64,000 bases of DNA from Spinacia oleracea. Lineage: Eukaryota; Streptophyta; Magnoliopsida; Caryophyllales; Amaranthaceae. Below the pieces are notes generated by a model. The model was not told where the DNA came from. It did not search any database and saw only the letters and a list, made by a program, of their open reading frames with translations. Numbering within the stretch: position 1 is the first letter of the stretch; the number at the start of each line of letters is the position of its first letter. Positions 37,936 to 53,345 of the stretch are shown here, one piece after another. The position numbers were made by a program, and so were the translations under genes. Location: assembly GCF_020520425.1 (NCBI RefSeq), contig NC_079491.1:22187449-22251448 (forward strand). The letters run 5' to 3'.

Positions 37936-38105
37936 AAGGAAAAGAACAAACGTTGTTTTTTGTTAATGAAAAGAACAAACGTTGTTTTTTTGTTAAAGAA
38001 AAGAACAATGGCTGCTTTGTTTTATTTTGATTTGGAAAAGAACAAACGTTGTTTTTTGTTAATGAAAAGAACAAACGTTGTTTTTTTGTTAAAGAAAAGA
38101 ACAAT
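37936..38105. repeat. Duplicated ~98-bp subterminal unit
   Basis: GAAAAGAACAAACGTTGTTT ... AAGAACAATGGCTGCT appears at about 37936 and again at about 38034. Each copy has three AAAAGAACA motifs, opposite in orientation to those in the transposase introns. Confidence 0.85.
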
Positions 38106-38251
38106 GACTGCTCTGTTTTATTTTGATTTTTTTTTCGCTCCATTTTTCTGGTATATATATCTTCCTTTTTATAATTTCGAATCAGAAACTATGAAGAGGA
38201 GAGAGAAACTATAAAGAGGAGAGAGAAACTGTGAAGAGGAGAGAGAAAGTA

Positions 38252-41200
38252 ATGGAAAATTTAGTTGATCTTTGTACTTCAATTTCAAATTCTATTGATT
38301 CTTCTTCTTCAAATTTGAATTCCTCAGCTGATAATCTGATTTGTGAAGGTAATTTTTCAATTTTTTAAAAACGAATTACTTGTTTGTGATGATTTTGATT
38401 TTGATTTTGATTTTCGTTATTTGATCATTTGAATTCATTTTGATTTTGTTGATCATTAGATTTCTGCATATCTGAAATTACTCTGATTAATGTATTTTAT
38501 TATATATGTTCTTATACATTTTCAGAAATTTTGAATAATGCGTTGGATCAATCGAAAGAAAATGATGTTGATGATGATCCAGAATCTTATGTGGTTGTTG
38601 GTCAAGGTATTAGTCCTGTTCTTTTTTTCGATTTTATATGTTCTTTTAGTCTAACGTTTTGTTCTTTTATATATTGGTTCTGTAATAAGTGATTGTAAGT
38701 AATGTAATAATAATAATTGATTGTAATAATACAGAAAATAATCATTGAACATGTTGTTCTTTTTTGCTTTAGCTTGTTGTTCTTTTGATATTACACACAT
38801 CATTTCAAATTGTTCTTTTATCATTTTTGTTGTTCTTTTATCATTTTTGTTGTTCTTTTATTTTTTTTCTTGTTCTTTTCACATTGTTAATAGGTGTTCT
38901 ACATGATTTGTTCTTTTCTGTTGTTTATAATGTTCTTTTTCTTTATTTTATTATGTTGTTTTATTTTTTATCTTGTTGTTCTTTTTTGCTTTAGCTTGTT
39001 GTTCTTTTGATATTACACACATCAGATCAAATTGTTCTTTTGTCATTTTTGTTGTTCTTTTATTTTTTTTCTTGTACTTTTCACATTGTTAATATAAGTG
39101 TTCTATATGATATGTTCATTTTCTGTTATTTATAATGTTCTTTTCATTTACTTTATTATGTTCGTTTATTTATAATGTTTTTTTCCTGTTATTTATAATG
39201 TTCTTTCTCTGTACTTTATTATTTTCTTTTATGCTCTATTGTTGTTCTTTTTGTGTTGGTAATGTTCTATTATTTTTGTAGATTTTGAAGAACCAGTTTC
39301 ACTTGAGGGTAGTGTAGTTAAGGATGATGATGAAGCGTATGAGTTATACAATAGTCATGCTTTTAGGAATGGTTTTGGTACTAGGAAGGGTAAAAAGGAG
39401 TATAGGAATGGTACCAAAATAGTTCGGCAGAGGTTCTTTGTTTGTGCATATGATGGTTTTAAAAAAGCTGATGGTGTTGTGCCTAAATGTTACAAAAAAA
39501 TTGATAGGAGAACTGGATGCAAGGCATCAGTTCAGTTTGATGTTGATAAGAAAACTAGAGTGTATGTTCTTTCTAAATACTCTCGTGTTCATAACCATTC
39601 AATGGTTCCCGCCAATAAGAGATATCTTATTAGGTCACATAGGAACATATCAAAAGAACAGTTGGCTTTCCTTACTACGTTTAGTTGTAGTGGTACTAAG
39701 ATTGCTGATGTTCTTCGAGCAATGAGGAAAGAAGTAGGTGGTGAAGCTAATTTATGATTTACTATTCCCGATGCATATGATGCTGTCAATGCGGAGAAAA
39801 AGAATAAGTTGGATGGTTGTGATTCAAATCAATTGATTAGGTGGTTTGCAATGAGACAAGCTAATGAATACGACTTTTATTATGATTTTCAACTTAATGA
39901 ATTTAATCAATTGACCAATTTTTTTTGGAGAGACGGGAGAATGCAGTCTGATTATGAAGCATTTGGGGATTTATTGATTCATGATACAACATATCGTACT
40001 AATAAATACGATATGATATGTGGTCCTTTTGTTGGAATGAATCTCCACACTCAAAATATCATGTTTGGAGTTGGGTTTCTTTTGAATGAGAAGGCAGGTT
40101 CTTTTGAGTGGCTTTTTAATTCTTTTTTGATATCTATGGGTGGGAAGCAACCGGTTACTATCATGACGGATCAGAGTTCTGCCATGGACAAGGCTATAAG
40201 GTATCGTCGATTATGATCCTATTATGTTCTTTATTGTACATTCATTATGTTCTTTTTATTACTTTTAATGTTCTTTTTATTAATATTATATATATATATA
40301 TATATATATATATATATATATATATATATATATATATATATATATATATATATATATATATATATATATATATATATATATATATATATATATATATATA
40401 TATTGCTTTTTGTTGATGTGTTTTAGGAAAGTGTTTCCTAAATCAAGGCATCGGTTATGTACATGGCATATAGGAGAAAATGCTATTGTAAACATCAAAG
40501 GTGTTATGGCTAAGGATGGTTTCAAACGTAGATTTGATTATGTTTTGAAATATACTGACACAATTGCCGAGTTTCAACATTATTGGAATAGGTATATTTT
40601 CCTAAATACACTTTATAATTCTGATAGTGTTTTTTTTGTTCTTTTGTTTTCTTTATGTGTTCTTTTATTTTTCTTCTGATGTTCTTTTTATTTTCATTGT
40701 TCTTTTCTATATATTGTTCTTTTTATTTTCGTTGTTCTTTTCTATATATTGTTCTTTTTATTTTCATTGTTCTTTTTTTTTATATATATTGTTCTTTTTT
40801 ATATGTTACGCGTTTTTTGTGTGACTTATTGTTCTTTTTTTTTCCTAAATACACTTTATAATTCTGATAGTGTGTTTTTTGTTCTTTTGTTTTCTTTATG
40901 TGTTCTTTTATTTTTCTTCTGATGTTCTTTTTATTCTCGTTGTTCTTTTCTATATATTGTTCTTTTTATTTTCGTTGTTCTTTTTTTTATATATTGTTCT
41001 TTTCTATATTTTACGCGTTTTTTGTGTGTACGTTTTGTGTGACTTATTGTTCTTTTTTTTTGTTATTTGTTCTTTTGTAGTCTTATGACTGATTACAATT
41101 GCAAGACACACAAATGGATAGAGAGGTTATATGATTTGAAAGAGAAATGGTGTCCTGCATATAACAAAGAGTGGTTTTCTGGGGGTATTTTATCTTCTCA

Positions 41201-52927: not shown

Positions 52928-53154
52928 TTTTTTGTAGAAATTGAGTTTGAATTGAGTTAGAAATGCAGTTGAGAGTAGAAGGAGGGAAGTTGATTAGTTT
53001 TTTGGGGAAATCGGTTTTGAGAATTGCATGTAACAGGGTACTTTGCAATTTGGGTATTTATACCAATGCTTTTAAGAGGAGAGATAAATAACTGTTCCTT
53101 TTTTAATTTTATATTTTAAAACATAACTGCTTTTAATATTTTTACTTTTGTCTT

Positions 53155-53345
53155 TTTATATTAGTGTTCTTTATGTTTTTTTGTTATTGTTCTTTTAGTA
53201 TACTTGTTGATGTTCTTTTCTGATTTATTTTCACTGTTCTTTTCTCTTTTTTTTTCTGCTGTTTTAGTGTTGTTGCGTTTTATTGTTTAATTTTTGCGTT
53301 TTTGGACAGGTGCACCAAGAGCACCGTGCACACCCCTGCACAATC
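53155..53345 (-). repeat. Right terminal and subterminal repeat of the Mutator-like element
   Basis: Reverse complement of the left terminal repeat (53255-53345) plus four or five TGTTCTTTT motifs on the plus strand (53163-53240). These are opposite in direction to the Ulp1 transcript, mirroring the left end. Confidence 0.75.

What the first reader, a model, noticed from the sequence alone, without database searches (positions are those of the whole stretch)
37936..53245. A 9-mer (TGTTCTTTT) saturates the element and mirrors its gene directions
In the transposase introns (38600-42650) the plus strand carries TGTTCTTTT scores of times. In the Ulp1 part (44400-51420) the plus strand carries AAAAGAACA, so it is TGTTCTTTT on the sense strand of that gene too. 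Near both ends (37936-38105 and 53155-53245) the motif is reversed relative to its neighbour gene. The switch is near 42790. This mirror symmetry is not explained by coding sequence and marks introns, not exons. It may be a splicing (pyrimidine-tract) signal, a transposase-binding array, or the footprint of a repeat-expanding process.
Basis: partly seen in the sequence, partly recalled or inferred. Interest (0 to 1): 0.85.

Follow-up and report, generated by a model that had tools for sequence, protein, structure and literature searches.

The report
Transposon's self-recognition DNA motif arrays
A large plant transposon carries about 150 copies of one exact nine-letter DNA word in its non-coding parts, often spaced two helix turns apart, which most likely let a protein made by the transposon find and coat it so that it can escape the plant's silencing.

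Summary
The element (37835-53354) is a 15.5 kb TIR MULE with a 9-bp target duplication, a FAR1/MULE/SWIM transposase gene (+) and a PMD-like/Ulp1 gene (-). It holds 148 of the window's 152 TGTTCTTTT sites. Modelled introns, one composite intron set aside, have 109 of 109 sites on the sense strand; modelled exons hold 4. Shuffles and anagrams do not reproduce this. The strand switch recurs in eight copies (some partial), a 73%-identical relative and a deletion derivative. Sites change about 3-5 times less than other non-coding DNA among close copies. About half of close same-strand gaps are 20-23 bp (two helical turns), also between unrelated spacers. Eight of nine PMD loci examined carry the word or a variant (TGTTCTTTA, ATGTTCTAA). 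Best reading: a directional binding array for an element-encoded protein, probably PMD-Ulp1, working like Arabidopsis VANDAL/VANC anti-silencing. Binding and demethylation are inferred. The strand mirror is probably secondary: a T-rich word is tolerated in introns only in sense orientation; two ATGTTCTAA loci do not follow that rule.

The parts
37826..37834 (.). 9-bp target site duplication TATTTTGAT (left copy; right copy 53355-53363)
   Evidence: similar duplications, not all perfect, flank copies A, E, G and I (read by eye)
37835..37885 (+). left terminal inverted repeat, imperfect, ~51 bp (37 of 51 positions match the right end, counted by eye)
37940..38103 (-). left-end motif array, 6 AAAAGAACA, opposite to the transposase gene
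   Evidence: TRF 96-bp and 30-bp units
38253..42763 (+). transposase gene (FAR1, MULE, SWIM), modelled exons 38253-38350, 38526-38606, 39282-40202, 40428-40590, 41081-42194, 42651-42763; in-frame TGA at 39755-39757 in this copy
   Evidence: Pfam FAR1 5.6e-14, MULE 2.2e-17, SWIM 1.6e-4; exons set by hand from splice signals in the sequence
38607..39281 (+). transposase intron 2 array, 17 sense / 0 antisense
40203..40427 (+). transposase intron 3, 2 sense / 0 antisense, with an (AT)n run
40591..41080 (+). transposase intron 4 array, 19 sense / 0 antisense
42195..42650 (+). transposase intron 5 array, 14 sense / 0 antisense
42764..43006 (-). convergent intergenic stretch where the strand switches (2 '-' sites, first at 42798)
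43007..44317 (.). later 1.3 kb insertion without motif, flanked by TAGTAGATGT
44685..52927 (-). PMD-like + Ulp1 (C48) gene, about 16 modelled exons; last exon tentative (the automatic model stopped before it)
   Evidence: model; PMD 5.4e-5 (23 bits, below Pfam cut-off 34.9) and Peptidase_C48 21.4 bits (cut-off 20.7); homologous exons in relative M
49597..50178 (-). PMD-like exon used for family search, alignment and tree
44317..51500 (-). Ulp1-side arrays: introns other than intron 2 hold 57 sense / 0 antisense; 6 more '-' sites downstream of the gene and 3 at the near end of intron 2
51501..52704 (.). composite part of Ulp1 intron 2: leader-like segment, then 9 '+' and 6 '-' sites
   Evidence: 155 bp at 80% to M
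53188..53243 (+). right-end motif array, 3 TGTTCTTTT, opposite to the Ulp1 gene
53304..53354 (-). right terminal inverted repeat

Best explanation
The TGTTCTTTT arrays are a transposon's own recognition tag. Shown here: an exact 9-bp word, conserved against mutation, fills the non-coding parts of a TIR MULE and its copies in head-to-tail runs with a preferred 21-bp repeat (two helical turns), and the word has variants with the core TGTTCT in more distant PMD-Ulp1 families. Inferred: the element-encoded PMD-like/Ulp1 protein binds the word, probably as a directional, cooperative array on one face of the helix. Introns, spacers and ends are the places where the word can accumulate without spoiling protein sequence. 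Binding marks full-length copies and deletion derivatives in trans and lifts host silencing (DNA methylation), as VANC does for VANDAL elements; the Ulp1 domain may remove SUMO from silencing factors. Also inferred: the strand mirror arises because the T-rich word suits plant introns only in sense orientation; its complement AAAAGAACA is purine-rich and would disturb splicing.
For: 148 sites in the element against near zero in shuffles, anagrams and flanks. Same strand switch in 8 copies, some covered only in part, and relative M, and in deletion derivative L040 with 36 sites in 2.5 kb. Motif sites change at 0.40-0.65% against 2.0-2.5% for other non-coding sites in W versus A, G and I, and 1.7% against 8.6% in W versus E (2.6% against 8.5% counted from E), below exons too. 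Intact 9-mers shared W-E 84 of 96 against 366 of 681 T- or A-rich non-motif 9-mers. Same-orientation gaps up to 60 bp falling at 20-23 bp: W 51 of 104, M 31 of 72, L031 10 of 14, L032 13 of 22, L030 4 of 6, L034 3 of 3; distinct spacers still peak at 21-22 and 42-43. Genome-wide, 3,830 pairs at 21 bp against 64 at 16 bp, reversed-pattern controls 4 and 1. Variant words in related PMD loci. PMD and DUF1985 models hit the same stretch of four proteins in this genome (in L038 PMD is below its cut-off) and hhalign links the element's domain to them (86%, E 4.9e-6). VANC21 binds a 9-bp motif, arrayed in one orientation in non-coding regions of its element, and VANC proteins carry DUF1985 (PMC5735166, passages). 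A review says some VANC genes carry Ulp1 (PMC13317346, passages). A PMD anti-silencing role in MULEs was suggested earlier as speculation (PMC5418596, passages).
Against: No binding, methylation or expression data. The DUF1985 model does not hit the element's protein, and PMD is below Pfam's cut-off. VANDALs are described as non-TIR elements; this one has TIRs. One of nine PMD loci (L039) shows no array, L029 has 10 sparse sites with 0 of 2 close gaps at 20-23 bp, L033 has one small array of 8 words, 43-57 bp apart where close, inside tandem repeats. The word does not follow the protein tree strictly: L033 carries ATGTTCTTTA, as L034 does, but groups with the ATGTTCTAA loci. L028, a locus with some similarity to the elements, has 1 of 5 close gaps at 20-23 bp. 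The transposase was not compared with the motif across families, so the binder is not identified. Beyond the first spacing peak there is no specific 10.5-bp periodicity. The structure model was poor and had no significant PDB match.
Confidence: 0.55

Rival explanations
1. Transposase-binding array: the FAR1/SWIM transposase binds TGTTCTTTT, to assemble the transposition complex or regulate its own gene.
For: FAR1 DNA-binding domain present; sites also lie next to both TIRs and in deletion derivative L040.
Against: Sites fill internal introns several kb from the ends, where a transposase need not bind; the closest tested precedent puts the binding on the DUF1985 protein (PMC5735166).
Confidence: 0.18
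2. RNA-level signal: UGUUCUUUU in the transcript acts as a repeated pyrimidine-rich splicing or RNA-protein site.
For: 109 of 109 sites in modelled introns (intron 2 of Ulp1 set aside) are on the sense strand; 7 of 20 acceptors have one within 30 nt.
Against: A 21-bp register has no obvious reason in RNA; the ends carry the word opposite to the genes; L040, without the domain exons, keeps it; anagrams with the same pyrimidines are not enriched; in the ATGTTCTAA loci sites lie on both strands of the gene (L032: 11 sense, 6 antisense) or antisense (L031: 5 of 5).
Confidence: 0.08
3. Binding site of a host factor (activator, or a host silencing factor) rather than of an element protein.
For: The sequence data show binding-site behaviour but not the binder; the core TGTTCT is shared by the families that carry an array, which a host factor could also explain.
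Against: The tail of the word differs between related families in one genome (TTT, TTTA, AA).
Confidence: 0.14
4. Neutral footprint of tandem-repeat expansion: slippage or unequal exchange multiplied a word that has no function.
For: TRF finds many tandem units carrying the word (20-23, 96, 243 and 249 bp); the L033 array lies in such units.
Against: Words are conserved several-fold better than their spacers; spacers are largely unrelated while the register persists; exons are avoided; the pattern survives in a 73%-identical relative.
Confidence: 0.05

Closest known systems
VANDAL21 / VANC21 and VANDAL6 / VANC6 anti-silencing systems (Arabidopsis; PMC5735166, passages seen)
   Same: Short exact motif (YAGTATTAY; AGTTGTCC or AGTTGTAC) at high density, in one orientation, in introns and terminal non-coding DNA of a MULE; tandem-repeat dynamics; motif differs between related families; the element encodes a candidate protein whose domain is related to DUF1985.
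   Different: Different motif; the PMD-like domain is recognised only weakly and not by the DUF1985 model; an Ulp1 domain is present; TIRs present; motif strand tied to gene strand here; no functional data here.
KAONASHI (KIU) Ulp1-carrying MULEs (review PMC13317346, passages seen; Sasaki 2022 EMBO J not held, its abstract recalled)
   Same: A MULE with an Ulp1-domain gene beside the transposase; the review says KIU elements are also anti-silenced through motifs in non-coding DNA. The Sasaki abstract, as recalled, names motif sequence, density and helical periodicity.
   Different: KIU elements are described as non-TIR; membership was not tested by phylogeny here.
PMD-carrying MULEs and host MAIN/MAIL1 (PMC5418596, passages seen)
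   Same: A PMD-type domain captured by MULEs; the authors speculated about an anti-silencing use.
   Different: They describe PMD fused to transposases in grasses and Amborella; here PMD is fused to Ulp1 in a separate gene, with motif arrays.

Membership tests
TIR MULE (Mutator-like element) | MULE transposase domain | tested here: met
   PF10551 2.2e-17
TIR MULE (Mutator-like element) | Terminal inverted repeats and 9-bp target duplication | tested here: met
   Imperfect ~51-bp TIRs; 9-bp TSD TATTTTGAT
VANDAL/VANC anti-silencing element | Non-TIR termini (as described in the review) | tested here: not met
   TIRs present
VANDAL/VANC anti-silencing element | VANC protein with a DUF1985 domain | tested here: inconclusive
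   DUF1985 not hit; PMD 5.4e-5, below cut-off; PMD and DUF1985 models overlap on the same four proteins; hhalign 86%
VANDAL/VANC anti-silencing element | Dense, same-orientation short motif in non-coding regions, rare elsewhere | tested here: met
   rarity elsewhere tested in this window and in the fetched stretches outside the copies (3 sites)
VANDAL/VANC anti-silencing element | Motif differs between related families in step with the protein | tested here: inconclusive
   Variants exist and ATGTTCTAA loci group together (88/89), but L033 (ATGTTCTTTA) groups with them and L039 has none
VANDAL/VANC anti-silencing element | Protein binds the motif and causes loss of DNA methylation | not testable with these tools
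   Needs EMSA or ChIP and bisulfite sequencing
KAONASHI (KIU) MULE | Ulp1 (C48) domain gene inside a MULE | tested here: met
   Peptidase_C48 21.4 bits against cut-off 20.7; His, Asp and Cys of the expected signatures seen by eye in the model (motif recalled)
KAONASHI (KIU) MULE | Phylogenetic placement with KIU proteins | not tested
   No plant protein collection was available

The most novel reading that the evidence does not exclude
Probability: 0.33. Interest if true: 0.72.

Novelty: new variant of a known kind. Interest (0 to 1): 0.55.

Why it matters
It would extend transposon-encoded, sequence-specific anti-silencing beyond the Arabidopsis VANDALs to TIR MULEs with a PMD-Ulp1 protein. 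It supplies sequence evidence for the published speculation that captured PMD domains serve anti-silencing. It also gives several natural motif dialects in one genome with a measurable 21-bp register, so protein-motif coevolution and the role of the Ulp1 domain become testable. It offers an explanation for a striking strand mirror that looks like a gene-direction code.

Tried and rejected
Generic pyrimidine tract or low complexity: rejected by the anagram and shuffle controls. General intron signal of the host: not supported, 4 sites in about 48.5 kb of window outside the element; host introns were not collected genome-wide. Motif-free centre as a functional boundary: rejected, it is a later insertion. 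Exact 10.5-bp periodicity at all distances: not supported; only the 21-bp register and its double stand out, and period 14 scores as well beyond 26 bp. Structure route: AlphaFold model of the PMD-like exon has mean pLDDT 62.8 and no PDB match with E below 0.001. L027 and L028, first fetched as possible copies, are not copies: L027 is an apparent host gene with small motif-bearing inserts, L028 a locus with 13 sites and partial similarity to the elements but no transposase, PMD or Ulp1 match. A k-mer scan was first read as showing no array in L033; a recheck of its list found one with the word TACATGTTCTTTA, so the reading 'no array' was dropped and the tree argument weakened; the odds of the host-factor rival and of the novel case were moved slightly for that reason. 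A genome-wide control at 26-bp spacing was asked repeatedly and never answered (last), so the genome-wide spacing comparison rests on 16 against 21 bp only. The first conservation run had a one-base coordinate slip and is replaced. Sasaki 2022 and Fu 2013 are not held; what is said of Sasaki 2022 is recalled or taken from the review passages. Print searches: no paper on this motif in a transposon was seen in the listings (20 of 666 shown; 1 of 1; 20 of 36 shown); this is a limited search.
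Full report
WHAT IS THERE. The window lies in an 894 Mb genome whose contigs C1-C6 are each over 110 Mb; this would fit spinach, an inference from memory. The element runs from 37835 to 53354, with imperfect ~51-bp terminal inverted repeats and a perfect 9-bp target duplication TATTTTGAT. It carries a transposase gene on the + strand with FAR1, MULE and SWIM domains. On the - strand it carries a gene whose modelled protein has a PMD-like domain (5.4e-5, below Pfam's cut-off) and a C-terminal Ulp1 domain (just above cut-off). 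The exon model rests on splice signals and homology to relative M; the last Ulp1 exon is tentative. The transposase reading frame has a TGA at 39755-39757, so this copy may not make a full transposase.

THE OBSERVATION. TGTTCTTTT occurs 66 times on + and 82 times on - in the element, and 4 times in the rest of the window. Dinucleotide shuffles of each of 15 segments (100 each) gave at most 2. Of 72 anagrams only register shifts of the same word are common. The 27 one-mismatch variants together total 78 (summed) against 148 exact words. Transposase introns: 52 sense, 0 antisense. Ulp1 introns except intron 2: 57 sense, 0 antisense. Left end: 6 reversed. Right end: 3 reversed. Ulp1 intron 2: 9 and 9. 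Downstream of the two genes: 8 '-'. Exons: 4 sites in 6,061 bases. One simple way to state the pattern is that the word reads away from each promoter-like point on both sides; this is a description, not a shown mechanism.

COPIES. Eight copies (A, B, E, G, I, J, K, Lc; B, J, K and Lc are covered only in part) and relative M show the switch from '>' in the transposase part to '<' in the Ulp1 part. The left end is '<' in A, B, E and I and 3 '<' to 1 '>' in G. Aligned identity to the window is 0.980-0.984 for A, G and I, 0.937 for E and 0.731 for M. A deletion derivative (L040, 2.5 kb) joins the element's left and right parts and keeps 36 sites in the same order of strand blocks, with one stray site. 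It matches none of the transposase, PMD or Ulp1 domain pieces, only 47 residues of an N-terminal exon of the Ulp1 gene. The window's motif-free centre is a later insertion; no copy aligned across it.

CONSERVATION. In W-A, W-G and W-I, motif bases differ at 0.40%, 0.65% and 0.48%, other non-coding bases at 1.96%, 2.53% and 2.36%, exon bases at 1.47%, 1.62% and 1.65%. In W-E the figures are 1.74%, 8.59% and 4.77%; counted from E's own sites, 2.62%, 8.48% and 4.77%. Whole words are intact in the other copy in 118 of 121 (W-A) and 84 of 96 (W-E) cases, against 672 of 806 and 366 of 681 T- or A-rich non-motif 9-mers. In W-M the values lean towards the motif because the aligner can anchor on it, so I give them less weight. 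Gene conversion between arrays could contribute.

SPACING. Consecutive same-strand sites up to 60 bp apart fall at 20-23 bp in 51 of 104 (W) and 31 of 72 (M) cases. Nearly all close neighbours point the same way (W 104 same, 1 opposite; M 72 and 6; L032 22 and 1). Tandem duplication does not explain this alone: grouping similar spacers still leaves 37 of 78 (W), 26 of 67 (M) and 32 of 77 (E) distinct spacers at 20-23 bp. In a pool of 188 distinct spacers from eight sequences there are 83 at 20-23, 25 at 41-44 and 2 at 31-32 bp. So the register is 21 bp, two helical turns, with skipped sites at 42. Genome-wide, pairs at 21 bp number 3,830 (reversed-pattern control 4) and at 16 bp 64 (control 1); a 26-bp control could not be obtained.

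RELATED FAMILIES. The PMD-like exon has 137 listed matches in this genome, some of them pieces of one locus, with 150 of 337 candidates scored. I read nine PMD loci: the window, M, and seven others chosen by identity class (L029-L034, L039). L029 and L030 carry TGTTCTTT(T), L034 TGTTCTTTA, L031 and L032 ATGTTCTAA. L033 carries one array of 8 ACATGTTCTT words, seven of them followed by TA, 43-57 bp apart where close, in tandem units. L039 carries none and L029 only 10 sparse sites. Gaps of 20-23 bp recur in L030 (4 of 6), L034 (3 of 3), L031 (10 of 14) and L032 (13 of 22), not in L029 (0 of 2). In a nine-row tree L031 and L032 group together (88/89), L033 joins them (90/87), and the other TGTTCTTT loci group more weakly (80/82). 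So the core TGTTCT and, where arrays are dense, the 21-bp register are shared, and the tail of the word varies between families, but not strictly with the tree.

WHY THE STRANDS MIRROR THE GENES. In loci with the T-rich word the intragenic sites are on the sense strand (window 109 of 109 as defined above; L030 9 of 9 between the PMD and last Ulp1 hits; L034 11 of 11 in the stretch). In ATGTTCTAA loci they are not: L031 5 of 5 antisense between two PMD exon hits, L032 11 sense and 6 antisense between the PMD and last Ulp1 hits. The simplest account is that DNA binding needs only a uniform local orientation, and that introns accept TGTTCTTTT (U-rich) but not AAAAGAACA. This rests on two ATGTTCTAA loci and on gene extents by homology, so it is an inference. 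It does not explain the outward orientation at the two ends.

MECHANISM. The features match the published VANC system: a short word, dense, same orientation, in introns and terminal non-coding DNA, in tandem repeats, different in related families, bound in vitro by the VANC protein, which bears DUF1985, and leading to hypomethylation (PMC5735166, abstract and passages; PMC10398659, passages). The PMD-like domain is linked to DUF1985 indirectly: in four loci of this genome both Pfam models hit the same stretch, and hhalign aligns the element's domain with these at 86% probability. A review states that some VANC genes carry Ulp1 (PMC13317346, passages). PMC5418596 (passages) speculated that PMD captured by MULEs serves anti-silencing. 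I therefore hold that the PMD-Ulp1 protein binds the arrays and protects the element, its copies and deletion derivatives from silencing. Binding, cooperativity, the role of Ulp1 and hypomethylation are not shown here.

VERDICT. Observation confirmed. It works like a VANC-type anti-silencing target, but membership in VANDAL is not claimed, since the element has TIRs and a DUF1985 domain was not directly detected.

Noticed in passing
window 43007-44317: 1.3 kb insertion with target duplication TAGTAGATGT and an A-rich tail, holding a 284-aa open frame without Pfam match; looks like a retrotransposed piece.
   Followed up: partly
window 51501-51800: Leader-like, GA-rich tandem segment on the + strand inside Ulp1 intron 2, conserved in relative M (155 bp, 80%) and well conserved in L040; may be a second promoter or remnant of a third gene. 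No + strand open frame of 80 aa was listed to its right within the element.
   Followed up: partly
window 39755-39757: In-frame TGA in transposase exon 3 of this copy.
   Followed up: no
window 40283-40403: (AT)n run of 61 units in transposase intron 3.
   Followed up: no
window 48100-48320: Ulp1 gene exon coding a long Pro/Gln/Glu-rich repeat; VANC proteins also have variable repeat-bearing regions (PMC5735166, passages).
   Followed up: no
L027 3750-4250: Intron of an apparent host gene (WD-repeat-like by eye) holds small inserts whose ends carry GGTGCA and AAAAGAACA/TGTTCTTTT words: possible MITEs of this transposon group.
   Followed up: no
G000 C1:23798650-23823048: Pair TGTTCTTTTGTCGTAGTGTC.TGTTCTTTT recurs, several times at about 3.46 kb steps, suggesting a tandem array carrying the motif.
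   Followed up: no
L035-L038: 149 listed DUF1985-model matches in this genome (150 of 893 candidates scored); the four loci seen have no TGTTCTTTT and also match PMD; possibly Gypsy-type elements.
   Followed up: partly
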